Below, one piece after another: positions 1,844 to 16,772 of a stretch of DNA of 64,000 nt. How positions within the stretch are numbered: the stretch's first letter is position 1; each line of letters starts with the position of its first letter. Source of the stretch: Pseudomonadota bacterium (GTDB taxonomy: Bacteria > Desulfobacterota > Desulfuromonadia > Geobacterales > Pseudopelobacteraceae); assembly GCA_019352135.1 (NCBI GenBank), contig JABBNX010000004.1:1-64000 (forward strand), given 5' to 3'. Under the pieces are notes generated by a model. That model had not been told where the DNA came from. It saw only the letters and a program-made list of their open reading frames with translations, and did no database searches. Made by a program: the position numbers and the translations under genes.

Positions 1844-3757
1844 CTACAAGCGTTTCCGTAAAACTCGTTTGTCTCCCACTCTGATGGTAACCTTTTCACT
1901 GTCGAAATGTTCCAAGAGCGGAATGAGAAATTTGCGAGACAGTCCCGTCAGTTCACGGTATTCAGGCGGTGTGATCTCTTCCTTTTCGCGAAGATGATGG
2001 ATCAATTTTTCCCGCAGGCCGTCCAAAACCTCGCTGGCGTAGAACAAATCACTGGATATACGCACCGCATCGCCATTTCTGATCAGGATGGCAATATTAT
2101 CGCGGACGGACTTCTCGTCAAAATGGAAACGCTCCATGAGCTCTTTTATGGTGGGAGGCTCAAGTGCTTTTTCCCGCAAAAATGAACTGACGGCCGACGT
2201 CAGCTCTTCTAGCGAAGCGGTTGTTCGCACAGCCTGGCCTGCCAGCATGACGATGTCACGCTCGGGTATTACCAACCCGTCCCGTTCCAGAGCTGACAGA
2301 ATCGGCGTAAAAAAACGCAGGTCACTTCGCTTGGGCAGACGGGTTTTTAGTTCTTCCTTACCCATTCCATGTTTAAGAGGGTTGGACGCCAAAAATGAAC
2401 TCACCTCATCTACCAATCCATTCTTGAGTGAATCAAAAGAATCTCTGGACAGAAACATGCGTGGTTCACGAGTCATTTGAAGAATATCACCGGTACTGAG
2501 GAGTACTGCAAGTGCCGTCTCTGCGGCCTTGCGTGCGATACCGGAGCGCAAGAGAATATCCTCGAATGAAATTCCGGACAGCTTGCTTTGGCCAATGATC
2601 AGGGCGCAGACTCGCTGGTGCTCCTGGCTCTCAAGTGACTCCAGCAGCATCACCGCTTCTTCACTCCGGCGCCTGCGGCGGGGGGGAAAGGGGTCCAACA
2701 CAACACCGCCGCCTATCGTGGTGGCGGGTGAGGCTATGCGCAGTATATAGCTGTCCCCTGAATTGAGCAGGACCGGTTCAGCCAGTCGCAACTGCGCATA
2801 CGTGCTGTCTCCCGGCTGAATGCTATCACGGTCCAGCAGGATAACCTGAGCTTGAACCTCATAGGTAGCCGAATGAAGTTGTACGCTGGTGCGGTGTTTC
2901 AATTCCCGGGGGGCCGTAGAGAGGTGGTCGAGGCGGACATCCACTGCGCGGGTTGTTTGAAACAGATTGCGTGGAACAACAACGTCTCCTCGCCGCACCT
3001 GATCCAGAGCCACTCCCTGCAAATTGACCGCCAGGCGCTGGCCTGCCAAGCCCTTTTCAACTTTGCTGCCGTGAGCCTGGATGCCGCGAACTCTTCCCTC
3101 CCTGCCTGACGGAAGTAGTTCCAATTCATCTCCAACGGTGATTTCGCCTGAGAGGAGAGTGCCTGTCACCACTGTTCCAAAACCGGTCATGGTAAAGACC
3201 CGGTCAACCGGCAAACGAAAGTACCCTTCACGGCGTTTTTCGGCAACATCGTTTGCCAGGCGGGTCAGGACGGTCTTCAGAACATCGAGACCTTCTGCGG
3301 TACGGGACGAAACCGGCACAATCGGGGCATTTTCCAGGAAACTGCCGGACACGAATTCGCGCACCTCCTCGGTGACCAGTTCCAGCCATTCCCGATCGAC
3401 CATATCGCACTTGGTCAGGGCTACCAGGCCGTTTTTGACTCCAAGTAACCGCAGGATATCCATATGCTCCCGCGTCTGTGGCATGATACCTTCGTCAGCG
3501 GCGATTACCAGCATGACAATATCCATGCCGCCAACACCGGCCACCATCGATCGTACAAATTTTTCATGACCGGGAACATCGATTATGCCGAATCTGATGT
3601 CTCCGGAAAGCTCAAGATGCGCAAACCCCAGTTCAATGGTAATTCCCCGCGCCTTTTCTTCCTTCAACCTGTCCGTGTCGATGCCGGTCAGGGCCCGTAC
3701 CAGTGAGGTTTTACCGTGATCGATATGTCCGGCTGTGCCAAGAATGAGATTTTTCAT
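1844..3757 (-). CDS. selB: Selenocysteine-specific translation elongation factor SelB
   Basis: 637-aa ORF; GTPase motifs [34 protein letters not shown] and a C-terminal winged-helix-like extension. Confidence 0.96.
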
Positions 3758-3906
3758 GATTGAAAATTTATGGGAATGCTGCGTCTGAGACTGACACCAT
3801 ACCGGTGCGGTTTTAGGGGGTTTTCACCTTTGTTACACAGTATCTGGTCCTGTTCCATATTGATTTCCGACCGCCTTTTGGAAGACCGACAACAGGATTT
3901 AAATGG

Positions 3907-3918
3907 GCACATGGGAAT
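3907..3918 (+). repeat. Putative distal att core GCACATGGGAAT
   Basis: Exact 12-bp match to the 3' part of tRNA-Sec at 13150-13161. Confidence 0.65.
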
Positions 3919-3976
3919 ACAAAAGTTCCCATATACGCTTAGATTAATTAAGTTATTTGCAATGTTATTTTGCTAG

Positions 3977-3998
3977 ATACACCTAAAGTTACACCTAA
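3977..3998 (+). repeat. Putative integrase arm-type sites (ATACACCTAA, GTTACACCTAA)
   Basis: Two tandem copies close to the left core; same motif recurs at 13010-13031 and inverted at 12882-12977. Confidence 0.55.
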
Positions 3999-4279
3999 AA
4001 GTTTCTGTCTATCATGATTTTACGTCAAAACTTGCAGCTGCAATATACTGGAACAGTGGTGACATTCCAATAAGAAACTGCACGGGGAAAAATATCACTA
4101 AAAGGTTTTGTGTATCTGATTTTGTTGCGGTTGTTTTTCTCCAGCTGAGTGCGGTCCCAATATGTTTTTCTGGCCGCGATTGCCATGGGGAGGGGTGGCA
4201 TGAGACGCGCTGCGCCGCTACGGTCACCTCTCTCACTGGGTGCGACAAATTTCCAGAGACTGTTAATCCCTCCGGAGTG

Positions 4280-4307
4280 TTGACAATGCCCATGTAACCG
4301 ATATACT
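4280..4307 (+). promoter_or_regulatory. Sigma-70-type promoter TTGACA-N16-TATACT
   Basis: Near-consensus -35/-10 just upstream of ORF 4326. Confidence 0.6.
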
Positions 4308-4325
4308 CACGCCAGAGGTGTCACT

Positions 4326-4679
4326 ATGAAAATGCTATTTTTATCTTCATTAACGATTTTCGGTTTGTCTATATTTGCTACTACTAAAACCTATGGTTAT
4401 TCTAATTTTGACTCAGTACACAAATATCCGTCTATGGACTGCCATAGTCCTTCTTCGCCACCGATAAGGTCAGAAAGGTTTAGGTATCGATCTCAAATTG
4501 ATGAGTACAACCAGCAAGTTGATCAATATAACTCAGATGTTTATAACTACTTAAGATGCATTAAAGATTATATAGTTGCCGCAGACAATGACATAATAAC
4601 AATTCAGAAGAACAGTGAAGAAGCGGCTAGGAGAGCCGAAGAATACTATTATCCCTTGCCATATGTAAATAGCCGGTGA
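4326..4679 (+). CDS. Small exported protein of unknown function (island cargo)
   Basis: 117-aa ORF with N-terminal hydrophobic signal-like segment; AGAGGTG ribosome-binding region and its own promoter; AT-rich. Confidence 0.6.
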   Translation: MKMLFLSSLTIFGLSIFATTKTYGYSNFDSVHKYPSMDCHSPSSPPIRSERFRYRSQIDEYNQQVDQYNSDVYNYLRCIKDYIVAADNDIITIQKNSEEAARRAEEYYYPLPYVNSR

Positions 4680-4818
4680 TTGGTCTGCGTCAGACCATTG
4701 GCGGAAATGTCCTTTTTCAGAGATTCAAACGATTCGCTGTCCATTATTAACCCATTCCCGCAACAGGTATTCTGTTAAATTCAACAGGTAAATATTTGAT
4801 TTTGTTGATGTTTTTCTA

Positions 4819-4847
4819 TTGACGCCCTCTTTCCCCTGTGTTAGCTT
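4819..4847 (+). promoter_or_regulatory. Candidate promoter TTGACG-N17-TAGCTT ahead of the structured RNA
   Basis: Good -35, weak -10; predicted start would be at about 4853-4855, where the complementary target begins. Confidence 0.35.
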
Positions 4848-4854
4848 CCCGTTT

Positions 4855-4866
4855 ATCCGCACTTAC
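4855..4866 (+). promoter_or_regulatory. Target-like sequence ATCCGCACTTAC complementary to 4984-4995
   Basis: Perfect 12-nt complement, 13 with the flanking T-A pair, of GTAAGTGCGGAT in the downstream structured element. Confidence 0.55.
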
Positions 4867-4939
4867 TAAAGCTTCTCCCCTGCTTCCCCCGGCGACTAAT
4901 ACAACGCTACGGGATACATCAACGCCCCCGGTTTCCGCT

Positions 4940-5013
4940 GAGTGCGTTGGTAGGATGTGCCCTTACCGCAAGGAGGGCAGCACGTAAGTGCGGATAGTCC
5001 TACCGGCGCACTC
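4940..5013 (+). ncRNA. Candidate 74-nt three-way-junction RNA, C4/CI antisense-RNA-like
   Basis: 16-bp outer stem GAGTGCGTTGGTAGGA/TCCTACCGGCGCACTC (two G-U pairs) enclosing hairpins GCCCTT-ACCGC-AA(GGA)GGGC and GCAC-GTAA-GTGC. Confidence 0.55.
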
Positions 5014-5050
5014 TTATAGTGTCTGGAATCCAAGTTAAGGGGTGTGCAGT

Positions 5051-5251
5051 ATGCAGAAAAACGAACAGTATAAGCGTCTTGAACAAGAGAGACCCGAAGC
5101 AATCAAGGCAGGCATCACTTATGGGGGGCAGGTTGTCCCGTTGGTTGATATGGGGGATTTATCGGCGCTTTCTATTCTCAACCGTGGGAGCTGGTGGGAG
5201 CAAGAAACACTCCGCAATAAATCGGTCGTAATGGCCGGGGGTGCGGCATGA
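5051..5251 (+). CDS. Small hypothetical protein
   Basis: ORF MQKNEQYKRLEQERPEAIKAG...; AAGGGG-like RBS; stop overlaps next start (ATGA). Confidence 0.5.
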   Translation: MQKNEQYKRLEQERPEAIKAGITYGGQVVPLVDMGDLSALSILNRGSWWEQETLRNKSVVMAGGAA

Positions 5252-5427
5252 AAAAAGATAACGTTCACCAGGATCTTTTCAGATGGTTATTACAAGATTT
5301 CAAGCCAGGTACAAGGATCGTCGTGTTAAAAGCAGCGATCAAGTACATGGATGATCATACGCAGGCATCCCTAAACGAATTTAAGCGGATAGGTCGCGCT
5401 TGTGTAATGCCAGGGGGTGCAGCATGA
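5248..5427 (+). CDS. Small hypothetical protein (59 aa)
   Basis: Manually read ORF MKKDNVHQDLFRWLLQDFKPGTRIVVLKAAIKYMDDH...; ATGA overlaps with both neighbours; not in the ORF track (below size cutoff). Confidence 0.5.
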   Translation: MKKDNVHQDLFRWLLQDFKPGTRIVVLKAAIKYMDDHTQASLNEFKRIGRACVMPGGAA

Positions 5428-5579
5428 CCATCGAAGAAATGATAGCAGAATTGATTCAGTTGAGATCGATACACGGAAAAGACGCCAGAATACTAGCCAA
5501 CCACGGTGAAACAGCAACACCTTATTTTATCCCGCCTGGTGACGGATGTCCCGGCTATATTTCACTAGAAAGCGAGTAA
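5424..5579 (+). CDS. Small hypothetical protein (51 aa)
   Basis: Manually read ORF MTIEEMIAELIQLRSIHGKDARIL...; ATGA overlap with upstream ORF. Confidence 0.45.
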   Translation: MTIEEMIAELIQLRSIHGKDARILANHGETATPYFIPPGDGCPGYISLESE

Positions 5580-5583
5580 GAAC

Positions 5584-5835
5584 ATGACACGCATCGCAGG
5601 GACCAAAAACAGTACCAACCCGCCCGACGGCATTGAAGCCGCCCGCAAGATGGCGAGAATCAAGGCACACGAAGCCGCCCCCGTATGGGGACTAGACCGA
5701 GTAGAGATATCGCGCTACTGCAACCGGGGAGAAATCCCCGGAGCGGTAAAACTCGGGCGGATCTGGTACGTGACCCCAGCAGGAATGGATAAGCTGTTTG
5801 AAGCAAAGAAAAACAGGGTGCGGCGCCAGGTGTGA
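5584..5835 (+). CDS. Small putative DNA-binding protein, excisionase/MerR-like HTH
   Basis: 83 aa; APVWGLDRVEISRYCNRGEIPGAVKLGRIWYVTPAGMDKL resembles helix-turn-helix Xis/AlpA-type DNA-binding domains. Confidence 0.6.
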   Translation: MTRIAGTKNSTNPPDGIEAARKMARIKAHEAAPVWGLDRVEISRYCNRGEIPGAVKLGRIWYVTPAGMDKLFEAKKNRVRRQV

Positions 5836-5862
5836 ATCTTCCGGCCGTCAGAGCATCCATCC

Positions 5863-5890
5863 TTGACATTGAAATTTATATATGTAGACT
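5863..5890 (+). promoter_or_regulatory. Sigma-70-type promoter TTGACA-N16-TAGACT
   Basis: Near-consensus hexamers 22 bp upstream of ATG at 5912. Confidence 0.6.
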
Positions 5891-5911
5891 CGCTCATAAA
5901 GAGGTGTTGCC

Positions 5912-6328
5912 ATGGAAAAGCTACTCGTATTTGCCGCCGTTGTTTTCCTTTCAGGTTGCGCAGGAACACCACGCCCCACCACAACAGATTTATCAAGCGG
6001 CATGACTCGCCAGGAAGTGCTGCAGAAGTACGTACAACCGGTGAACGCTACCATGTCGAATGGTACGGATTACCTGATTTACAAATTTAATGATCACGCT
6101 TATGGCCGGGACGATAATTCTTACGCCCTTGGTTTCCAGAATAACAGGCTTGTGAGTGTCGCGCCACTACCGGAGGATCAACAAGAAATGGGGCCGATTG
6201 ATAGGGTTTTGCGCTCACGCCGACACTCTGTAAACTATGGCAATTCTTACATAGAAACCCCCGACGCATACGGGCCCGGTGTACATATGGATCAATACGG
6301 CCGGCCTGTGCGAGTAGTCCCTCAATAG
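5912..6328 (+). CDS. Predicted lipoprotein (island cargo)
   Basis: 138 aa; lipobox LSGC after short hydrophobic leader; GMTRQEVLQKY region faintly like SmpA/BamE-type folds. Confidence 0.7.
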   Translation: MEKLLVFAAVVFLSGCAGTPRPTTTDLSSGMTRQEVLQKYVQPVNATMSNGTDYLIYKFNDHAYGRDDNSYALGFQNNRLVSVAPLPEDQQEMGPIDRVLRSRRHSVNYGNSYIETPDAYGPGVHMDQYGRPVRVVPQ

Positions 6329-6348
6329 ATCTAATCTTGAACAGGAAA

Positions 6349-6385
6349 GGCACGAAACCATATTACGGTGGTCACGTGCCTTTTT
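6349..6385 (+). terminator. Rho-independent terminator
   Basis: GGCACG...CGTGCC stem followed by TTTTT just downstream of ORF 5912-6328. Confidence 0.55.
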
Positions 6386-6464
6386 ACTGATTGGTCCCCG
6401 CCCTTTTTGCGTTATTCGTTATTACCGGCGCCCGGCCATGCTTCCGGGTTTTTTACTGATTGGT
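6381..6464 (+). repeat. 15-bp direct repeat TTTTTACTGATTGGT (6381-6395, 6450-6464)
   Basis: Two exact copies 69 bp apart in the junction between the converging transcription units. Confidence 0.5.
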
Positions 6465-6481
6465 GTTCTGGTGCATGGCAT

Positions 6482-6519
6482 AAAATAAGGCCGGGATCCC
6501 CAGGGGAGGGAAACCGGCC
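6482..6519 (-). terminator. Candidate terminator of the minus-strand operon
   Basis: On minus strand GGCCGG...CCGGCC followed by TTATTTT. Confidence 0.4.
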
Positions 6520-6529
6520 GTTTCCATAT

Positions 6530-6784
6530 TCACCCTTGTCCGTAAAGGTGCCGTGTCAGGAACACCATGGAAATTCTCAATTCGGGGAAATCCAGTTTTC
6601 TGAGAAAATTCATGGTGCGCTGGCCGTTTTCCTCTTTGTCCCCGTCTGATCTATACCGAGCAGAAAAACTGGCCGGCCATGTTTGGCATGGTTCAAACAG
6701 TGTGCAAAATCCTTCCTGCTGATAGAAAATACACCCTGGTCCGCAGGAGGTCACGACACCCCGTTTCCAATGACATCCGCTCAT
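6530..6784 (-). CDS. Small Cys-rich protein
   Basis: 84 aa MSGCHWKRGVVTSCGPGCIFYQQEGFC...; start 3 bp past the upstream stop, AGGAG Shine-Dalgarno within the end of the upstream gene. Confidence 0.5.
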   Translation of the reverse strand: MSGCHWKRGVVTSCGPGCIFYQQEGFCTLFEPCQTWPASFSARYRSDGDKEENGQRTMNFLRKLDFPELRISMVFLTRHLYGQG

Positions 6785-6787
6785 GGT

Positions 6788-7624
6788 TTAAACTCCTACG
6801 TTTATTGATTGTCCGAAGCTGCTGGAACCGGAAGTCTGGCCGCCGGTGTTGTTCCATAGGCCCTGCAGATATTCAAGCGGTTTCCATCCTGCCTGATAGG
6901 AATTATTAGCATTGGTCACGTTGAAATTATTGGCGGCTTGCGCCCCTGCCTGGTTGTAGGCGTTTTGTGCTGTGGCCTGGTCTGCTCCTGCCTTTTCATA
7001 AGCACCTGAATAGGCCGCATTGGTGTCGTTTGCTGCTTGCAGTGCCAGCCCTGACGACCAGAGCCCCCGCTTGGCGAGGTTGTTGTCCAGTGCCTGCATG
7101 TCCTTGCCTTTGGCATAATCGAGCCCCTGTGTGTAGCCTCCAGCCTGGAATGCTCCCCCGCTTTGATACTGCGGTGTTTGATAGACAGGGAGATTTATTC
7201 CGCCTGGGTCTGCTGCGCCGGTCGGCATATTCACCGTTGGGTCAGGGGCTTGAAAGTATGCTTTAATACCTTCCATCCCGTTTGCAAACTCCTTGCCGGG
7301 GTCTAATCCGGGGATAAGGGGTGGACTATAGGCTTTCCCTCCTTTGTCATAAGTAGATGAGTTACCGGTTGCATCGTAAAGACTGCCCCATGCACCCGGG
7401 GTGTATCCTGTTTGCATTTGCCCGGGAGCCTGGCTGTTGGTGGCAATGGGGTTAAACGTCGCATTGGACGCGTTCGACATGCTGCCTGTGCCGCCGTATG
7501 GCAGGCCGCTCTGGGTGTAGGTGTTGAGGATGTTACCGATTGAGGAACGGTAAAGGTCCTGCCGCTCTGCCGCTGTTAGTGGTTTGCTCGCTGTCTGACT
7601 GCTGGTTGTGCTTTCTCCGCCCAT
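6788..7624 (-). CDS. Phage virion-associated-like protein (low-complexity, possible DNA-ejection/tail protein)
   Basis: 278 aa rich in G/N/Q/A/S/Y; composition like phage internal virion/ejection proteins; downstream of TerS-like gene. Confidence 0.45.
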   Translation of the reverse strand: MGGESTTSSQTASKPLTAAERQDLYRSSIGNILNTYTQSGLPYGGTGSMSNASNATFNPIATNSQAPGQMQTGYTPGAWGSLYDATGNSSTYDKGGKAYSPPLIPGLDPGKEFANGMEGIKAYFQAPDPTVNMPTGAADPGGINLPVYQTPQYQSGGAFQAGGYTQGLDYAKGKDMQALDNNLAKRGLWSSGLALQAANDTNAAYSGAYEKAGADQATAQNAYNQAGAQAANNFNVTNANNSYQAGWKPLEYLQGLWNNTGGQTSGSSSFGQSINVGV

Positions 7625-7751
7625 AATGATTCTCCTTTCTGTTCTTTCAATTGAACTGGTTTGGTTACTGGCATCTGTCCTCTTCCAATCTGTGCATTCA
7701 TGTCATAGTCCCCCCCTTATGCTGCAGTTATTCCCCCGGTCGCCGGCACTC

Positions 7752-8300
7752 TCAGAGGATGTCATAATCAGTTCCCTTCGCCGGTCCATATCCGTAGCGT
7801 GACAGGTCCACCGGGCACACATCGACGTTTAGGTTCAGGTTGACATTCTTGGTCGCCGGGTAAGAGTCCGTCAGCTTCAATCCCTCCACTGTGGCCCTGA
7901 GTGATACGTTTGGATCATTACCGTCTACGTGATGCTTGAGGCGCGCTATCAAGTGTCCACGGGTCAGCCCCTGCGCCTCCATGATCGTACTTATGGCAAG
8001 GTTTATGTCTGGGTCCTTCATGAGTCTGTTACCAATGGCCTTGGCCGAATCATACGAACCGACATCAAAGGCAGCGACCGCGCTCTGTGTTTGTGACGTG
8101 CCGGAACAGATCTCCGCGACGAACCGTTGCTCCTTGGCTGTCAGGTTATCCAGAACGGCGGCTTGTGCTGCGTGCTGGCGTAGGCGCTGGAGCCGCTTAC
8201 TTATTGCAGCCGGTGATACGTCGAAATGGGCGGCTATGGCTGTTTGTTGGTCTCCCCGATCTGCCATCTCCAAGAGTAATGCATCGTCTATTTTTCGCAT
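7752..8300 (-). CDS. Phage terminase small subunit-like DNA-binding protein
   Basis: 182 aa; N-terminal HTH (QQTAIAAHFDVSPAAISKRLQRLR) then LTAKEQRFVAEICSGTSQTQSAVAAFDVGSYDSAKAIGNRLMKDPDI typical of TerS-like proteins. Confidence 0.7.
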   Translation of the reverse strand: MRKIDDALLLEMADRGDQQTAIAAHFDVSPAAISKRLQRLRQHAAQAAVLDNLTAKEQRFVAEICSGTSQTQSAVAAFDVGSYDSAKAIGNRLMKDPDINLAISTIMEAQGLTRGHLIARLKHHVDGNDPNVSLRATVEGLKLTDSYPATKNVNLNLNVDVCPVDLSRYGYGPAKGTDYDIL

Positions 8301-8396
8301 TGTGAGGGCTCCTTTGACGTTTACTTTCCCGCCTGGTTCATTTTGTTGATTTGAATAATCTGGTTAATTTTCCCATGATGATAAAAACCGGGTACT

Positions 8397-8597
8397 TTAT
8401 ACGTCCGCCCAATTACCGGTTCTCACACCAGTTAGCCCACAATGCCCACTTTTATTATCGGTGCGACTGAGGGTGACCCATGCTGCACACCCTTCGCCAA
8501 GACATTTATCATTTATGGGTGCGGTTCCGCTTCTGGACCTCCCCGGTTTTGCAAATGGGCACCAATATTCCCCGGCTTCGCTCAATAACATTTTCAT
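8397..8597 (-). CDS. Small Cys-containing phage-type protein
   Basis: 66 aa; WCPFAKPG...KCLGEGCAAW...GHCGLTG pattern seen in small phage proteins; good RBS context. Confidence 0.55.
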   Translation of the reverse strand: MKMLLSEAGEYWCPFAKPGRSRSGTAPINDKCLGEGCAAWVTLSRTDNKSGHCGLTGVRTGNWADV

Positions 8598-8634
8598 AAT
8601 TTTTTTCTCCTTAACGGCCTATTTTAACCTTAAA

Positions 8635-8880
8635 ATGCTACCTGTAAGCTACCTGTAAGCTACCTATCCATATTTATAAATAGTTGGTATTAAAGGCTTT
8701 ATGCCACCTATGCCACCTATGCTACCTATTATTCGCACGTATAGAGATTTTATATCTACAGACATTACATTGTCTTTTTTTCGTATAGGCTTTTAAAATA
8801 GGTGCCATACGTGGCTTAGGTGGCATAACATCTATAATTACGGCTAGTTACAATGTTGATAGGTGGCATATAGGTGGCAT
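8635..8880. repeat. Two-sided iteron array, candidate replication origin
   Basis: ATGCTACCTGTA 8635, AGCTACCTGTA 8647, AGCTACCTATC 8658, ATGCCACCT 8701 and 8710, ATGCTACCTATT 8719; inverted AGGTGGCAT at 8818, 8861 and 8872 plus a degenerate copy near 8799; AT-rich centre; adjacent to primase gene. Confidence 0.75.
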
Positions 8881-8886
8881 TTCGTG

Positions 8887-10467
8887 TTATTCCCCCCAAT
8901 CAACACTTGATTTTATTAACGATTCAAAGTGTTTCCGGCACGTTTCCAATGGTGGTACATGGTAGTGATAGGCCTGTGTAGCGCCAATACTCGGGTATTC
9001 GGTTTCAATTTGTCTGTAGCATCTTGATTTCCAACCTTTCGGTAATACTTTGCGGAGAGACATCCCGAATAGAGTTTGCCCCGCTCTATGATGTATCGAC
9101 CTATCGGCCATGTTCGCGATATATGACCCGTAGAGCTTTTCAGTAGGGATATATTTCCAACCACTACCAGGAATGAGCTCCCCCTCAGACAAGCGGTGGA
9201 ACCACCATTGGAAGAACGGGTCAAGGCTCTGCAGCTTTTGTTCAAATAGCCCTGATGTCTGCGGTACATCCCGAATTTGAAAGTCACCCAGATCGTGATT
9301 TTGGAGAGCATGGAGCATTGCAGCAAGACCGTCTGCTTCCATTTCATCTACCAATGCTTTAAAATAGGCTTTGTCCTGCATCTTCGCGTCTGATACGTCC
9401 AGGACACAAAAGCGGCGTTCTTCTAGTCCAGCCGGGACAACCCAGTCATTATTGGAGGCCATAAGGATGTGGAGCATGTTCCGGACAAATACCACGTCAC
9501 GCCCTTTGCCTTCGATCGTCAGTGTAGGTTCGGTGATAACGCCCTTCAAAACAGACTCGCCCTGTTTATCACCAGCCCAAAACGCCTCGTCAGCGAATAG
9601 AAAAACGACATCTCGCAAATGGCTGTTAAAATTCCCTGTCAAGTATTTGCTGCTCGTAATATGCGCGGCGTTCCCTCCGAACAGCTTACACATATAGTTG
9701 CCTAACATGCCCTTGCCTGTGCCGCGCTTCCCACGGAGGACTAAGGCAACCTCTGCTTGTTCCCCCGGCTTCTGAACGGCGGTAGCAAGCCATCCCATTA
9801 CATATTGGTACGCGGTCTCGTTATCGGAACATACAACATGGAAAATATGGTCATGCATCCTCCGCCACGATCCATCTGCTGGCTGAACGGAAAAGCCCCG
9901 CCATAGGTTATAAAATCCCGGCGTTTCCTTGCCAGGCTCCAACGTGATCCCTTCATATTGGCGGCGGTCTCCATGCTTTAACCACACTTCTCCAAGCGGC
10001 TTATACACAGGTTCCCCGGCTTTGCTCTCTCCGAAATATACGATATTGTTTAAGTGGTAGTTCTGGAAGTCGATAAAGCTTGAATGGTGCAGTTCGTTGC
10101 GTCCCATAAGTGCATTCCACGATTCAGCGAATACATAAGTTCTGCCGCCTTCTTTGCTTACAAAGTGCGTTTCATTCAGTTTTGTTACCCTCTCCGTGGT
10201 TTCTTGCTCAGGGTCTGTTCCACCGTTAGGACGTTGCTGGGTATCGGTATGAACTATTTTAGAAGATGTTTTTACCGTCTGTTTTCGTGCGCTTTTCTTC
10301 GCTGTGTCCCTGCTGGGGATAGGGCCATCCCAGGGGATAAATTCACCGTTTTCAGATTTACAGAAGTATGAGTACCCATCCAGACTCCTATCAGGCTCTG
10401 TTTTTGTCACTGGTTGCGGGGTATCCATGAAGATGTCGTAGTAATAAAGTTGCAGGGTTTTACTCAT
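8887..10467 (-). CDS. Phage/satellite primase-helicase (DUF5906-type SF3-like ATPase)
   Basis: 526 aa; LVLRGKRGTGKGMLGNYMCKLFG Walker A, VVFLFADEAFWAGDKQ Walker B, ILMASNNDWVVPAGLEERRFCVLDVSD. Confidence 0.85.
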   Translation of the reverse strand: MSKTLQLYYYDIFMDTPQPVTKTEPDRSLDGYSYFCKSENGEFIPWDGPIPSRDTAKKSARKQTVKTSSKIVHTDTQQRPNGGTDPEQETTERVTKLNETHFVSKEGGRTYVFAESWNALMGRNELHHSSFIDFQNYHLNNIVYFGESKAGEPVYKPLGEVWLKHGDRRQYEGITLEPGKETPGFYNLWRGFSVQPADGSWRRMHDHIFHVVCSDNETAYQYVMGWLATAVQKPGEQAEVALVLRGKRGTGKGMLGNYMCKLFGGNAAHITSSKYLTGNFNSHLRDVVFLFADEAFWAGDKQGESVLKGVITEPTLTIEGKGRDVVFVRNMLHILMASNNDWVVPAGLEERRFCVLDVSDAKMQDKAYFKALVDEMEADGLAAMLHALQNHDLGDFQIRDVPQTSGLFEQKLQSLDPFFQWWFHRLSEGELIPGSGWKYIPTEKLYGSYIANMADRSIHHRAGQTLFGMSLRKVLPKGWKSRCYRQIETEYPSIGATQAYHYHVPPLETCRKHFESLIKSSVDWGE

Positions 10468-10645
10468 TGATCACCTCCCGCGCCGTCACAATAACGGCGT
10501 TCATGGTGTCATGATCGAATGTACCGAATAGTTGCGTTGTTTGTGAGCTTGTGGTAGGCTTCAGGCACAAATTGTCTTTTGCTTTCCCCTTCTCCAAGCC
10601 CGTTTCCGGTTGCCCCCCGGTTGCGGGTTTCCTGTTTTTAGGCAT
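10460..10645 (-). CDS. Small hypothetical protein in the alpA-primase operon
   Basis: 61 aa; overlaps the end of the AlpA-like gene and the start of the primase. Confidence 0.45.
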   Translation of the reverse strand: MPKNRKPATGGQPETGLEKGKAKDNLCLKPTTSSQTTQLFGTFDHDTMNAVIVTAREVINE

Positions 10646-10934
10646 GGCTTAAAACCTCCCCTGACGATTGAATCAGTGCCCGGATGTCCTCTACACGCCA
10701 ACAGGTTGTGCGCTCTGACAGTTTGATCGAAGCCGGATAACGTCCCGATGCCACGCCCGACCACCATGATGACTTGCTTACGGGGATAATTGGCGCAATC
10801 CCCTTCTTTTTGTCGCCCAAAATTTGCGACAACCTCACAAGACCTGTTTCCGGTAAAACATTTTGTACCGCTTTTGTTTGCTGGCTCTGCATGGCCTGCT
10901 CCTTTTGAGTGAGCAACAAAAAAGCCTGTGACAA
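10638..10934 (-). CDS. AlpA-family phage regulator
   Basis: PIIPVSKSSWWSGVASGRYPASIKLSERTTCWRVEDIRALI is typical of AlpA/HTH_17 proteins; the start codon could be an internal Met. Confidence 0.8.
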   Translation of the reverse strand: MSQAFLLLTQKEQAMQSQQTKAVQNVLPETGLVRLSQILGDKKKGIAPIIPVSKSSWWSGVASGRYPASIKLSERTTCWRVEDIRALIQSSGEVLSHA

Positions 10935-10981
10935 AACGCCGGAACATAATCAAATGCTCTTGGTGTTTCATCACAGGCTTT
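10921..10981. repeat. Perfect 11-bp inverted repeat AAAGCCTGTGA/TCACAGGCTTT
   Basis: 10921-10931 and 10971-10981, spanning the 5' end of the AlpA-like gene. Confidence 0.55.
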
Positions 10982-11167
10982 CCGAAAAGTCGCGCTTTCG
11001 CGGGGGTCGTTGGTCTGTTGCTTATGTGGTTTGTACCGTATCCGTTGGGCTTCCGCTGCTGCCTGTTTGTCTCAACCGTCTAATTAGTGACGGGGGCTTA
11101 CTCTCCCTTGCTGCTCTGGTTACATCTTTCAAGGGTAAGCCCGGCTTTCACATCGTACCGCGTTACG

Positions 11168-11539
11168 TTATGGTTGGATAAAATGTACCTCTTTCAAATT
11201 ATCATAGTGCGAATGAAACTCAATTCTTCCTTGAAAAAGGGCCGGCATCTCCGGGAACATCTCCATAAATTTAGGCATTGCTTCTTTGAATGTTTTTTTT
11301 AAATGTGCCGCTATCCCTTGATGTCGTATTCCGTAATTTTGGTGTATATTTAAAGGCCTAACTCCAGATTGACTGTCATGGTAAGTACTCATAAGCTGGA
11401 AATCCCAACTTTCCCACTCCTCATCTGTTGTACCCGGCTTGCGTCTCAACTCATAGTCTATTGACCTGAGTACTTCGTATGGATCGCCGTAACGTGAAAC
11501 TGTTCCTTTGCCGGGTATTTTCAAAATAAATCGTTCCAT
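11168..11539 (-). CDS. Hypothetical protein in the int-alpA cargo slot
   Basis: ORF MERFILKIPGKGTVSRYGDPYEVLRSIDYELRRKPGTTDEEWESWDF...; no recognised family. Confidence 0.55.
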   Translation of the reverse strand: MERFILKIPGKGTVSRYGDPYEVLRSIDYELRRKPGTTDEEWESWDFQLMSTYHDSQSGVRPLNIHQNYGIRHQGIAAHLKKTFKEAMPKFMEMFPEMPALFQGRIEFHSHYDNLKEVHFIQP

Positions 11540-11558
11540 GCCCACAAGATAAAGCACC

Positions 11559-11602
11559 TAATAGGATGGTGTCAACATAAAAAAGACGTAATAGGATGGT
11601 GT
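11559..11602 (-). repeat. 14-bp direct repeat TAATAGGATGGTGT with 30-bp period
   Basis: 11559-11572 and 11589-11602, upstream of ORF 11168-11539. Confidence 0.55.
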
Positions 11603-11633
11603 AAACCTTCAACGTTACACACTTTTTATGGTT

Positions 11634-12881
11634 TTATGCCGCTTTCTGCTTGAACGGCAACACTTTTGCACCCGCCTTAAGACCGTCCAGGTAATCAGCC
11701 CAGAGCTGCATCATTTTTTTACGCTCATCAAGGTGTGCCGTCCGATTATACGCCCTGCCGTTCGGGTCTTTGACTGCGTGTGCAAGTTGGTGTTCAATGA
11801 AGTCAACACGAAAGCCCAAGATTTCATCGAGTATCGTTCTGGCTGTCGCTCTGAATCCGTGGCCGGTGATTGTGTCGCCATCGAAGTCCATGCGCCGAAA
11901 AGCGGCATTGATAGTGTTGTCGCTCATACATCGGTCGAATGATCTTGTTGAGGGGAAAACATATTTACTATTTCCAGTAAGAGGCTTAAGTGCTGTCAGG
12001 ATCTCTATCGCTCTGACTGACAGTGGTACGAGGTGAGCAACTTTCATCTTCATCTTCTGTGCAGGAATGTTCCATTCAGCCACTTCAAAGTCAATTTCAG
12101 ACCACTCCATATGCCGCAACTCACCAGGCCGCACAAATAGCAGCGGCAATAACTGCAACGCACTCTTGGCAACAAAGCCCCCCTGATATCCGTCTATGGC
12201 TCTGAGTAGTGGTGCAAGTTCCTTTGGGTCCGTTATTGATGACATATGCTTACGTGTCTTGCTGACGGCTGGTAGGTGTTTGCTCAGGCTTGTGGCAATA
12301 TTATATTCAGCCCTGTCTGTCCCAATCGCGTAAACGAATACCTGACTTGCTATCGTTCTACACCGGCGGGCAGTATCAACAGCCCCCCTCTCTTTCACCT
12401 GGTCAAGAATAGTTCGGATGTCTTTGGCTGTGACTTCGGTTATCGGCTTTCCACCGATCCGAGGAAACATATCTTTTTCCATACGGGTCATAATCGTATC
12501 AGCATGGTCTGCTGTCCATGCACTATCACCCAACATTTTCTTGTGCCATTCACGGGCGATACATTCAAAGCTGTTTGCCAGCAATTCTATCTTGGCTGCT
12601 TTGACGGCCTTACGATCTGTCGAAGGGTCAACACCTGCGGCAAGGAGCTTTCGTGCCTCCTCCCGCTTCTCACGGGCTTGTGCAAGTGATATTTCAGGAT
12701 AGGTGCCGAACGAGATGGTTTTGCTCTTGCCTGAGTGGGAATATTTGAAGCGCCACCACTTGCCGCCAGATGTCGCAACAAGAAGAAAAAGACCACCACC
12801 ATCAAACAGGTGTTGCGGCTTGTTTCCGGCTTTGGCTCTTTCTATCTCTAAAGCTCCTAGTGGTAACGTTTTCCTTGCCAT
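11634..12881 (-). CDS. int: P4-type site-specific tyrosine integrase
   Basis: 415 aa; N-terminal DUF4102-like arm-binding domain, catalytic motifs RPGELRHMEWSEID, HGFRATARTIL, HQLAHAVKDPNGRAYNR. Confidence 0.95.
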   Translation of the reverse strand: MARKTLPLGALEIERAKAGNKPQHLFDGGGLFLLVATSGGKWWRFKYSHSGKSKTISFGTYPEISLAQAREKREEARKLLAAGVDPSTDRKAVKAAKIELLANSFECIAREWHKKMLGDSAWTADHADTIMTRMEKDMFPRIGGKPITEVTAKDIRTILDQVKERGAVDTARRCRTIASQVFVYAIGTDRAEYNIATSLSKHLPAVSKTRKHMSSITDPKELAPLLRAIDGYQGGFVAKSALQLLPLLFVRPGELRHMEWSEIDFEVAEWNIPAQKMKMKVAHLVPLSVRAIEILTALKPLTGNSKYVFPSTRSFDRCMSDNTINAAFRRMDFDGDTITGHGFRATARTILDEILGFRVDFIEHQLAHAVKDPNGRAYNRTAHLDERKKMMQLWADYLDGLKAGAKVLPFKQKAA

Positions 12882-13031
12882 TGGTGTAACTCCTTTCTGC
12901 TGTGATGCCCATATAATAAGCGTTTGTGAACTATTGGTGTAACATCTCGCGACAAAAATAGGAGCAAATGGTGTAAGTTTTTTTGGCTTTTATGAGGTGC
13001 ATTGAAGCTGTTACACCATAAGTTACACCTA
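12882..13031. repeat. Putative integrase arm-type sites, right side (TGGTGTAAC/GTTACACCA)
   Basis: TGGTGTAAC at 12882 and 12935, TGGTGTAAG at about 12969, GTTACACCA at 13010, GTTACACCTA at 13022. Confidence 0.6.
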
Positions 13032-13081
13032 TAATTAGTGGACTGCAAGGGATAATATAGGACAATAAAGGACAATAGATA

Positions 13082-13110
13082 ATAAAAAAGCCCCTAATTT
13101 CAAGGGGCTT
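13082..13110 (-). terminator. Rho-independent terminator downstream of selC
   Basis: Minus strand AAGCCCCTtgaaattAGGGGCTTTTTTATT. Confidence 0.7.
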
Positions 13111-13141
13111 AAGACTTCTCAGGAGCGTATAAAACATTAAA

Positions 13142-13239
13142 TGGCGGAAGCACATGGGAATCGAACCCACCGGGGAGATTTCTCATCCCCCCCACTGGTT
13201 TTGAAGACCAGGCCGCCCACCAGCGACGGACGTGCTTCC
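13142..13239 (-). tRNA. selC: tRNA-Sec (anticodon UCA)
   Basis: 8-bp acceptor stem GGAAGCAC/GTGCTTCC, anticodon loop CTTCAAA, long variable arm, T-arm GGTGGGTTCGATTCCCAT (GTTCGATTCC), discriminator G and encoded CCA; 98 nt. Confidence 0.96.
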
Positions 13240-13264
13240 AAAGAGGAATAGCGCAAAAACAAAT

Positions 13265-14209
13265 TTACAACAATTCGATTGCAGCAGCATTTTCAGAAGT
13301 GTGAAAAGGTGACTGCAAATTAAAAGTCTGAAAGACGGACTCAATAAAATCCTTGAGTAAGGGGTCATGAACCTTGTTCTGATTACAGGCCAATGTACGC
13401 GAACGGGTATTACAAAACCCGGGAATAACGTGTTCACGGAGATTACCCGCATTAATATGGTCAGTAACCAGAGATCTCGATACAAAGGCAACTCCTTGCC
13501 CCTGTAAGGTCGATTGTATTAAACATCTGAGATGATCGTGAATGATAACACCCCTGAAGTTTTCAACAGAGTTTCCTGTTTTGCTTAAATTGTCCTTGAA
13601 AAGGTGACGTGAACTACATCCATCTCGTCGTGATATGAGTCGATGTTTAAAAAACTCTTCGAGCCTGGTTTCCTCGGTTGCAATTCCCAGTGATGGTGAT
13701 GAAATCATGACCATTTCATCTTTGAACAGAGGAAAAAGCGCAAGGTTTTCTTTCTTTAATTCCTCACAGTGCTCAATAACAATAACGTCAAATATTTTAT
13801 CAGCAAGATTTTTAATTAATTGATCTGATTGTTGGGTAATAAACTTGATATCTATTTCATGACTGTTTTTTTTCAGAAAGATATCTAAAACCTTCGGCAA
13901 GAAAACAAAACCGAATGTCGGCGTAAAGCCTATTGAAAACTCTACTTTCTTCCCCAAGTTCTTTACATCATTTTCGAGATCGTGTACAGCCATCAAAATC
14001 ATATTTGTTTTAGCAAGTACTTTCTCTCCTGACGGGGTTGGCTTAAGAGTCGAACCTGAACGGTCTATCAGTTGGCATCCATAGTGATCTTCAAGAAACT
14101 TTATGCGCTGGGATACCGCTGATTGAGTTATACACAGTTCCTGAGCAGCGAGGGAAAAGCTTCCCAGATCCAAAACATATTTGAATGTTCTTAGGTAGCG
14201 CGTTTCCAT
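13265..14209 (-). CDS. LysR-family transcriptional regulator
   Basis: N-terminal METRYLRTFKYVLDLGSFSLAAQELCITQSAVSQRIKFLEDHYGCQLIDRSG. Confidence 0.92.
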   Translation of the reverse strand: METRYLRTFKYVLDLGSFSLAAQELCITQSAVSQRIKFLEDHYGCQLIDRSGSTLKPTPSGEKVLAKTNMILMAVHDLENDVKNLGKKVEFSIGFTPTFGFVFLPKVLDIFLKKNSHEIDIKFITQQSDQLIKNLADKIFDVIVIEHCEELKKENLALFPLFKDEMVMISSPSLGIATEETRLEEFFKHRLISRRDGCSSRHLFKDNLSKTGNSVENFRGVIIHDHLRCLIQSTLQGQGVAFVSRSLVTDHINAGNLREHVIPGFCNTRSRTLACNQNKVHDPLLKDFIESVFQTFNLQSPFHTSENAAAIELL

Positions 14210-14656
14210 TTTTTACCTCGCCAATTCCACTACGAAACGGCGTAAATATAACAAACTACACATATTAAAGTCAATTTATTTTCACATTATAAAAGCGGTA
14301 AACTGCTTTCTTCGTGGACTGCCTCATCGTGCCGCAATTCTCTTCTACGCTACCTTTGGGTGCGCTCTGATTTTAAAGTTGATTGCGTTGGAAATAACCT
14401 CTTAATTATAGTTTTCTCCTCAAACCTGAGGACTATTGCATTTTTGCTTGAAACCATTTAAAAATAGACCGTGGAGATGGGTAGATGCGTCTGTAATATA
14501 TGTATTTAAATCCTTAGAAATGTGCTATTCAACTGGTTGCCTCCGTTCATTCACTAAGCCCTTCGCCGGAAAAAGCTGCTTTCATTTCTATTTCACGATT
14601 AAATTGCTTATTTAACAATAACAGACTGTTTCTTAAGGAGATTGAGGAGGTTGTAT

Positions 14657-15103
14657 ATGGCTAAAGGAAGTTTTGATGCGACAGATTTGTTTGCCCCCTT
14701 GATGCTTCGCATTCCGCTCGGGCTGATCTTCATGGCTCACGGTTCTCAGAAACTCTTTGGTCTTTTCGGTGGTCAGGGATTGACGGGGACATTTAAAACC
14801 TTTGAAGAAAAAATGGGGATTCCGCCTATTTTCACATTGCTGGCGATCATCGCTGAATTTGGCGGTGGTTTTGGCATTTTGACCGGCTTTATGACCCGTC
14901 TCTCAGCAGCGGGAATCTCAGCAGTCATGTTGGTTGCCATCTATAAGATTCATTGGGCCCATGGTTTTTTTCTTAATTTAAACTGCGTCCCCGGTCGCGG
15001 GCAGGGCATCGAGTACAATGCCGCTCTGCTGGGTATGGCCCTCTACCTGATGATTGCCGGAGGCGGCCGATGGTGCCTTGACCGGCTGGTATTCAGGTCA
15101 TAA
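14657..15103 (+). CDS. DoxX family membrane protein
   Basis: [44 protein letters not shown] before ATG 14657. Confidence 0.88.
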
Positions 15104-15131
15104 TAACCTTCACCTATTGTGTTTAAAAATC

Positions 15132-15152
15132 AGGCGGGCTTGCCCGCCTTTC
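15132..15152 (+). terminator. Rho-independent terminator-like hairpin
   Basis: AGGCGGGCTTGCCCGCCT followed by TT. Confidence 0.5.
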
Positions 15153-15188
15153 GATTGTCATACAGATTGTTATAAGGAGTTACACCCC

Positions 15189-16772
15189 GTGGAACTGTTC
15201 AACCAGATAGAAGTCGAAAAACGTCGTACCTTTGCCATTATCAGCCATCCCGATGCCGGAAAAACCACGATCACAGAGAAGCTGTTGCTTTTCGGCGGCG
15301 CCATTCAGCAGGCTGGAGAGGTTCGCGCCCGCAAGAGTGCCCGACATGCAACATCCGACTGGATGGATCTGGAAAAACAGCGCGGCATTTCAGTTACCTC
15401 ATCGGTCATGAAGTTTACCTATGATGAATGCGAAATCAATCTGCTGGATACCCCCGGCCACAACGACTTTTCAGAGGATACCTACCGCGTCTTGACAGCC
15501 GTAGACTCGGTATTGATGGTGATTGACTCTGTTAAAGGAGTTGAAAGCCAGACCAAAAAGCTGCTGGAAGTCTGTCGATTACGTCACACTCCGATCATGA
15601 CGTTCATGAACAAGCTTGACCGTGAGGGACAGGAACCGTTTGATCTTCTGGACGATATCGAAAAAAACCTTCACATGCAGACCGCTCCGATAACGTGGCC
15701 GATTGGAATGGGAAAGCGTTTTCGGGGGACCTACCACTTATATACCAAAGAGTTGACCTTTTTTGACGCAGATGCAGATGACGGTACCGGTGAAATAATA
15801 ACGGTTACGGGGCTGAACGATCCACGTCTGGATGAACTGCTTGGAAGTCAGGTAGAAGAACTGAGAAATGACATAGAACTGTTGGAGGGGGCGGCAAATC
15901 CCTTTGATATGCCGGCATACCTGGCAGGAAAACAGACGCCGGTTTTCTTTGGCAGTGCCATTAATACGTTTGGTGTGCAGCAGTTGCTGGATGCTTTTGT
16001 CCAGTATGCACCGCATCCGTTACCACGCGAAACTGCAACTCGTACTGTTTCTCCCTATGAAGAACCCTTCAGCGGGTTTACATTCAAAATTCAAGCGAAT
16101 ATGGACCCGGCTCACCGTGACCGGATCGCGTTCTTCCGGATCTGTTCCGGCAAATTTACCCGGGGGATGAAGGTTCGCCATGTCCGTTTGGGGCGTGACG
16201 TTCAGATCGCAAACGCTACTATATTTATGGCACAGGATCGCACCAATGTGGAAGAAGCCTGGCCGGGCGATATAATCGGCATCCATAATCACGGTACAAT
16301 CAAGATTGGCGATACCTTTACGATGGGTGAAGATCTTAAGTTCACTGGTATCCCGAGTTTTGCCCCTGAACATTTTCGCAAGGTACGTCTGCTCAATCCG
16401 ATGAAATCAAAGGCATTGGAGAAAGGGTTAGTCCAGTTGGCTGAAGAGGGTGCTACCCAGGTGTTTAAGCCTCTGATGGGTTCGGATTGGGTTATCGGAG
16501 CGGTTGGACTGCTGCAGTTCGAGGTGGTTATGCACCGCCTTGAACACGAATACAGTGTTAAAGTGGCTTTTGAACCGGTCAGTTATGTAACCGCTCGCTG
16601 GGTTACCGGTGAGAAAAAGCATATTGAAGATTTTGAGAAGAAAGAAGCGATGCATGTCTATATTGATGGGGAAAGCAAGTTGACCTATATGGCTGGGAGC
16701 CAGTGGCGTCTGGATAATACTATTGAGAGCTGGAAGGATCTGGTCTTTCATGAAACCAGTGAGCACAGCTAA
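15189..16772 (+). CDS. prfC: Peptide chain release factor 3
   Basis: [43 protein letters not shown] start with AAGGAG RBS, downstream of the ORF-track start. Confidence 0.95.

What the first reader, a model, noticed from the sequence alone, without database searches (positions are those of the whole stretch)
3907..13161. Undescribed candidate phage satellite integrated at selC (tRNA-Sec)
The ~9.25-kb element has a satellite-style layout: P4-type integrase next to the tRNA, then alpA - small ORF - primase/helicase - iterons - small Cys protein - TerS-like - virion-like protein on the minus strand. A separate set of small genes and exported cargo sits on the plus strand. No portal, large terminase, capsid or lysis genes are seen. 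By established knowledge, int/alpA/primase occur in P4 and Gram-negative PICI-like satellites, and selC is a known P4-type integrase target in enterics. The combination here with TerS and a virion-like protein, in a Geobacter-like host, looks new.
Basis: partly seen in the sequence, partly recalled or inferred. Interest (0 to 1): 0.82.

Follow-up and report, generated by a model that had tools for sequence, protein, structure and literature searches.

The report
Geobacter phage satellite carrying virion-like gene
A 9.2-kb parasite of bacterial viruses sits in the selenocysteine-tRNA gene of a Geobacter-like bacterium; it belongs to a previously unreported (as far as could be searched) family of small tRNA-integrated satellites and has picked up genes, including a probable virus-particle protein, that match one particular kind of short-tailed phage.

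Summary
A 9.24-kb element (about 3,900-13,140) is inserted between selB and selC. A close relative (G086, SelB 97% identical) has the empty site, and both ends carry the tRNA 3' end. Right-hand genes: integrase, AlpA-like, small ORF, DUF5906 helicase, iteron origin, terminase-small-subunit-like protein (TerS). The origin (two opposed iteron sets around an AT-rich stretch, directly 3' of the helicase gene) has the organisation described for PICIs. All 14 other loci found for this TerS lineage in Desulfobacterota are islands (5.9-10.4 kb where measurable) with an integrase beside a tRNA gene and no large terminase nearby. The lineage was not found in the phage, plasmid or IMG/VR collections. So it is a PICI-like phage satellite, of a TerS lineage not found described. 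The odd part is the left half: four genes (278-aa virion-like protein, excisionase-like regulator, 51-aa protein, lipoprotein) have best matches in one podovirus-like prophage (G114), the best helper candidate. A satellite copy of a helper-type internal virion protein was not found described. Mobility and helper dependence are untested; the distal att core has lost 5 nt, so this copy may be locked in.

The parts
13142..13239 (-). selC, tRNA-Sec: insertion target, kept intact
   Evidence: ARAGORN, Rfam RF01852
13137..13161 (.). tRNA-side att core (TTAAATGG CGGAA GCACATGGGAAT)
   Evidence: direct repeat with 3899-3918; 25-bp overlap of the two blastn blocks from the empty site in G086
3899..3918 (.). 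distal att core (TTAAATGG GCACATGGGAAT), lacking the 5 nt CGGAA that the tRNA copy and the distal copy of the G092 selC island have
12883..13029 (.). cluster of five TTACACC repeats (12883, 12936, 12970, 13011, 13023), probable integrase arm sites; another at 3989 by the distal end
   Evidence: window 3971-4070 is 82% identical to the distal end of another selC island, L109
11634..12881 (-). tyrosine integrase, 415 aa, arm-binding type
   Evidence: PF13356, PF22022, PF00589; 81-82% identical integrases at selC in G110 and G102
11168..11557 (-). 129-aa ORF, unknown
10638..10934 (-). AlpA-like regulator/excisionase, 98 aa
   Evidence: PF05930 E 0.034, phrog_2790 E 0.019; 56% to L102, 75% to L054
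10460..10645 (-). 61-aa ORF, conserved between alpA and the replication gene in sister island L102 (45%)
8887..10467 (-). 526-aa replicative helicase without the N-terminal primase part of its relatives
   Evidence: PF19263 E 4e-20, phrog_1156 E 1e-52; relatives 670-780 aa
8637..8880 (.). iteron origin: GCTACCTGTAA direct repeats, three TAGGTGGCAT-type iterons on one strand (8701-8728), 72% AT stretch (8730-8798), four iterons on the other strand (8799-8880)
8397..8597 (-). 66-aa Cys-containing ORF
   Evidence: no family hit
7752..8300 (-). TerS-like protein, 182 aa: N-terminal HTH plus terminase-small-subunit DNA-binding domain
   Evidence: PF03592 29.7 bits (cut-off 26.1), phrog_51 E 1e-10; 15-member lineage
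6788..7624 (-). 278-aa virion-like protein, homologue of a G114 late-region protein next to ejection-type genes
   Evidence: 53% over 276 aa; pN 0.30 with pS saturated
5912..6328 (+). 138-aa BamE-like lipoprotein, candidate superinfection-exclusion cargo
   Evidence: 50% over 99 aa to the G114 lipoprotein between repressor and integrase; BamE weak
5584..5835 (+). 83-aa excisionase-like HTH protein
   Evidence: phrog_2655 E 1e-7; 44% to a G114 early gene
5424..5579 (+). 51-aa ORF, next to the excisionase-like gene as in G114
   Evidence: 49% over 55 aa (G114 translation)
5042..5427 (+). two short coupled ORFs (69 and 59 aa) with overlapping stop/start codons
   Evidence: sequence
4326..4679 (+). 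117-aa exported protein, unknown
   Evidence: no family hit

Best explanation
A PICI-like phage satellite. The integrase recombines an attP into the 3' end of selC; AlpA and the excisionase-like protein control induction and excision; the helicase starts replication at the iteron origin directly downstream of its gene; the satellite's own TerS then directs a helper phage's large terminase to package satellite DNA into helper particles. The left half holds genes shared with a podovirus-like phage of the G114 type, taken to be the helper lineage or a past one: an excisionase-like regulator, a lipoprotein that may exclude competing phage, and a variant of an internal virion (ejection-type) protein that could be built into the hijacked particle. 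Shown: insertion, empty site, att repeats, gene content, origin layout, the TerS lineage's confinement to islands in the sample, homology of four genes to one prophage. Inferred: helper dependence, packaging by TerS, incorporation of the 278-aa protein, exclusion.
For: Empty site in G086: blastn maps its 4.2-kb locus onto window 15074-13137 and 3918-1696. TerS lineage: 6 further genomes in 141 of the order, 8 more complete loci in 396 of the phylum; all 14 lie by a tRNA gene with an integrase, with 46-57-bp tRNA-derived direct repeats 5.9-10.4 kb apart in eight of them. No large-terminase (phrog_2) match on their contigs except a weak one in a 1587-aa ORF. The lineage is absent from 50,697 phage and 72,556 plasmid records and from IMG/VR scans, apart from one 37-residue HTH match. 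Origin layout as in PMC6092414 Fig. 2. Sister island L102 keeps int (53%), alpA (56%), orf61 (45%) and TerS (61%). Four of 14 element proteins match the G114 prophage, against none of 50 other window ORFs; among 178 ORFs of the 14 other islands only generic integrases, two HTH/TerS-type proteins (one being L102's second TerS-like protein, 43%) and one lipoprotein match. Lipoprotein and 278-aa protein each have one full-length-type relative in IMG/VR, the same phage.
Against: No excision, induction or transfer data. The distal att core has a 5-nt deletion, so this copy may be fixed. No helper prophage was found in the host: only weak phrog_2 matches, and no phrog_1328 major-capsid match. The TerS call rests on a partial Pfam match (56 of 141 positions); a fold search gave nothing significant and the N-terminal HTH resembles transcription regulators. 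The candidate helper's own TerS is of another family. The virion role of the 278-aa protein rests on gene position only; its model was unusable.
Confidence: 0.75

Rival explanations
1. Composite: a real but simple satellite (integrase to TerS) whose left 3-4 kb is debris from a G114-type phage gained by recombination; the 278-aa protein and neighbours do nothing for the satellite.
For: The helper-like genes are confined to one side of TerS and the 278-aa gene converges on the plus-strand genes, unlike the phage order. In L102, TerS is the last island-type gene before unrelated genes. The distal att is damaged.
Against: Four separate reading frames are intact; the 278-aa protein kept its length with far fewer nonsynonymous than synonymous differences (most of that divergence may predate capture). 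Islands L139 and L140 also carry small lipoproteins beyond TerS, one distantly related to the one here, so cargo there is a normal feature.
Confidence: 0.3
2. An integrative island that is not packaged by phage: the TerS-like protein is a regulator or phage-DNA decoy, and spread uses another route or has ended.
For: TerS identity is by partial domain match; N-terminal HTH; no resident helper found.
Against: All 15 lineage members match a terminase-small-subunit PHROG, 11 match PF03592; no relaxase was recognised among the element proteins; PICI-type origin; links to a podovirus-like phage here and in L102.
Confidence: 0.12
3. A decayed podovirus-type prophage reduced by deletion.
For: Four genes match one prophage.
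Against: Those genes are not in phage order or orientation; integrase, AlpA, helicase and TerS have no comparable relative in that prophage; sister islands with the same TerS and clean att repeats exist.
Confidence: 0.06

Closest known systems
Gram-negative phage-inducible chromosomal islands (PICIs; EcCICFT073, PmCI172; PMC6092414)
   Same: Integrase, AlpA, replication gene with two iteron sets flanking an AT-rich stretch directly 3' of it, TerS in some members, no large terminase or capsid genes
   Different: 9.2 kb instead of 12-15 kb; plus-strand module converging on the main block; one virion-like protein; TerS of its own lineage; host phylum Desulfobacterota
EcCIMP1, an E. coli PICI with helper vB_EcoP_Kapi1 (PMC11773190)
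   Same: Second AlpA/excisionase-like gene resembling the helper's xis; contributes to superinfection immunity (here only suggested by the lipoprotein)
   Different: No virion-like protein was noted in the passages read; host and sequences differ
P4-like satellites, including the selC-integrated retronphage phiR73 (own knowledge)
   Same: Integrase with an arm-binding domain, tRNA target, AlpA-type regulator, D5-type helicase
   Different: No Psu/Sid-type capsid genes recognised; PICI-type origin; carries TerS
Capsid-forming PICIs (as described in PMC10690885 and PMC11389934)
   Same: Satellites that encode some virion proteins
   Different: cfPICIs carry the head and packaging set including portal, capsid and both terminase subunits; here only one probable internal virion protein

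Membership tests
Gram-negative PICI (criteria of PMC6092414) | Integrase, replication module and master regulator in conserved order | tested here: met
   int - orf129 - alpA - orf61 - helicase - ori - TerS; the alpA assignment leans on sister islands
Gram-negative PICI (criteria of PMC6092414) | Origin directly 3' of the replication gene: two iteron sets flanking an AT-rich stretch | tested here: met
Gram-negative PICI (criteria of PMC6092414) | No phage structural or lytic genes | tested here: inconclusive
   no portal, large terminase, capsid or lysis family hit, but the 278-aa protein is probably of virion origin
Gram-negative PICI (criteria of PMC6092414) | Size about 12-15 kb | tested here: not met
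   9.24 kb; sister islands 5.9-10.4 kb
Gram-negative PICI (criteria of PMC6092414) | Unidirectional transcription away from integrase | tested here: not met
   main block unidirectional, but the left third runs the other way
Gram-negative PICI (criteria of PMC6092414) | att site never used by prophages; genes exclusive to satellites | tested here: inconclusive
   TerS lineage found only on islands; occupants of selC across species not surveyed for prophages
Gram-negative PICI (criteria of PMC6092414) | Phage-dependent induction and packaging | not testable with these tools
   needs experiment
P4-like satellite | Psu/Sid-type capsid control genes | tested here: not met
   no such family among Pfam/PHROGs matches of the element proteins
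Integrated mobile element at selC | Empty site in a relative and duplicated att core | tested here: met

The most novel reading that the evidence does not exclude
The satellite makes its own version of a helper podophage's internal (ejection-type) virion protein, next to its own TerS, so that particles packed with satellite DNA carry satellite-coded ejection machinery: satellite control over DNA delivery rather than capsid size.
Probability: 0.25. Interest if true: 0.8.

Novelty: new variant of a known kind. Interest (0 to 1): 0.62.

Why it matters
It extends TerS-carrying, PICI-like satellites to Geobacter and other Desulfobacterota, with a TerS lineage that can serve as a search handle. It names a concrete candidate helper type (the G114 podovirus-like prophage) from shared genes, which is unusual for a satellite found by sequence alone. 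If the 278-aa protein enters particles, it shows a satellite acting on the DNA-delivery step, where known satellites are described mainly as acting on packaging and capsid size.

Tried and rejected
P4-type filing: dropped for the PICI-type origin and TerS. Decayed prophage: gene order and sister islands argue against it. Fold search of the TerS model: no significant match. Model of the 278-aa protein: unusable, pLDDT 36; no PDB sequence relative. Known defence genes among the small ORFs: none in PADLOC. Helper in the own genome: only weak TerL matches, in ORFs of 585 and 1198 aa (similar weak matches recur in relatives), and no phrog_1328 capsid match. Extra att copies inside the element (tandem insertion): none. 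RNA families: only tRNA-Sec over its threshold; a MEG8_3 match below threshold is taken as chance. Iteron search behind the replication genes of other islands: no clear arrays except weakly in L048. Two literature searches (Geobacter and Desulfovibrio with satellite terms) found no matching description; the main SatelliteFinder paper is not held, so 'not described' is limited to what could be searched.

Full report
What is there. The window is the first 64,000 bases of a 65.8-kb contig of a 3.8-Mb, 275-contig assembly. selA (275-1663), selB (1844-3757) and selC (13142-13239) are in place, with 9.24 kb of extra DNA between selB and selC. In relative G086, whose SelB is 97% and LysR 96.5% identical, selC and selB lie 147 bp apart; its locus aligns to window 15074-13137 and then 3918-1696, the two blocks overlapping by 25 bp of the empty site. 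That is a clean integration with a duplicated tRNA 3' end. Clustered TTACACC repeats near the tRNA end and one at the distal end look like integrase arm sites, and integrases 81-82% identical sit at selC in two other genomes of the genus. The distal core lacks 5 nt (CGGAA) that is present at the tRNA copy and in the distal copy of another selC island in G092 (L109), so excision of this copy may be impaired.

The core block. From the tRNA inward: integrase, 129-aa ORF, AlpA-like gene, 61-aa ORF, 526-aa DUF5906 helicase, iteron origin, 66-aa ORF, TerS-like gene, 278-aa gene. The origin has three iterons on one strand and four on the other around a 72% AT stretch, directly 3' of the helicase gene. 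[quoted passage not shown]

The TerS lineage. Six further genomes of 141 in the order carry a TerS of 37-62% identity; a profile search of 396 genomes of the phylum gave eight further complete loci plus a contig-end fragment. I read the surroundings of all 14: each is next to a tRNA gene and an integrase, usually with a primase or helicase gene. Direct repeats of 46-57 bp of the tRNA 3' end bound eight of them at 5.9-10.4 kb, and a 20-bp repeat bounds a ninth; the other five gave none, several being cut by contig ends. Large-terminase matches (phrog_2) in these genomes lie on other contigs or far away; the one on the same contig is a weak match in a 1587-aa ORF. The lineage is absent from the phage and plasmid collections and, apart from a 37-residue HTH match, from IMG/VR scans. 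All 15 members match a terminase-small-subunit PHROG and 11 match PF03592, but the match is to the DNA-binding part, so packaging remains an inference.

The helper-like module. The 278-aa protein (53% over 276 aa), the 51-aa ORF (49%), the 83-aa excisionase-like protein (44%) and the lipoprotein (50% over 99 aa) all find their match in one prophage, G114:C4 about 5-47 kb, integrated at tRNA-Arg. It is podovirus-like: its capsid matches phrog_1328, a sister phage G097 has an SU10-type adaptor, and the 278-aa homologue lies between the adaptor/tail region and large ejection-type proteins (the ejection label is by position only). In G114 the excisionase-like and 51-aa genes are divergent from the repressor and the lipoprotein lies between repressor and integrase. 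Controls: no other window ORF outside the element matches this prophage; in 178 ORFs of the 14 other islands only generic integrases, two HTH/TerS-type proteins and one lipoprotein do. The matching prophage was found through the 278-aa protein; the other three matches were then unselected. I had no searches left to test the three small genes across all genomes, so they may be commoner in other prophages than this shows; in IMG/VR the lipoprotein has only this phage as a full-domain relative and the 83-aa protein has it as best match. The capsid type is rare as a prophage: strong in 2 of 141 genomes of the order and not in the host.

Reading. The element is best explained as a PICI-like satellite with a module shared with its probable helper lineage. 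A parallel exists: EcCIMP1 carries an excisionase-like gene resembling its helper's and contributes to superinfection immunity (PMC11773190). What I did not find described is a satellite with a single helper-type internal virion protein. Whether that gene works in the satellite or is captured debris is open; I give the functional reading 0.25.

Noticed in passing
L054 (G000:C155), 8892-13496: A second island in the same genome at tRNA-Glu with a related integrase (53%) and AlpA (75%), plus a 366-aa replication-type endonuclease; no TerS seen before the contig ends.
   Followed up: partly
L056 (G000:C126), 1-540: The start of a third related integrase beside tRNA-Leu, cut by the contig end.
   Followed up: no
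L110 (G102:C289), 6100-15870: Two islands appear to sit in tandem at selC, with a partial selC copy between them; the second integrase is 81% identical to the one here.
   Followed up: partly
L102, 9137-9577: A sister satellite has a second, TerS-like HTH protein 43% identical over 69 aa to the TerS of the G114 podovirus-like prophage, a further satellite-helper link.
   Followed up: partly
L139, 7926-9582; L140, 7884-9714: Other islands of this TerS lineage carry rows of small lipoproteins on the opposite strand beyond TerS.
   Followed up: partly
window 4854-5015: Structured stretch upstream of the plus-strand operon: a perfect 13-bp inverted repeat and a long hairpin with two competing folds (z -2.25); function unknown.
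   Followed up: partly
window 6280-6325: The lipoprotein ends in GPGVHMDQYGRPVR, absent from the G114 homologue, but 80-88% matching stretches occur twice over in several IMG/VR contigs.
   Followed up: no
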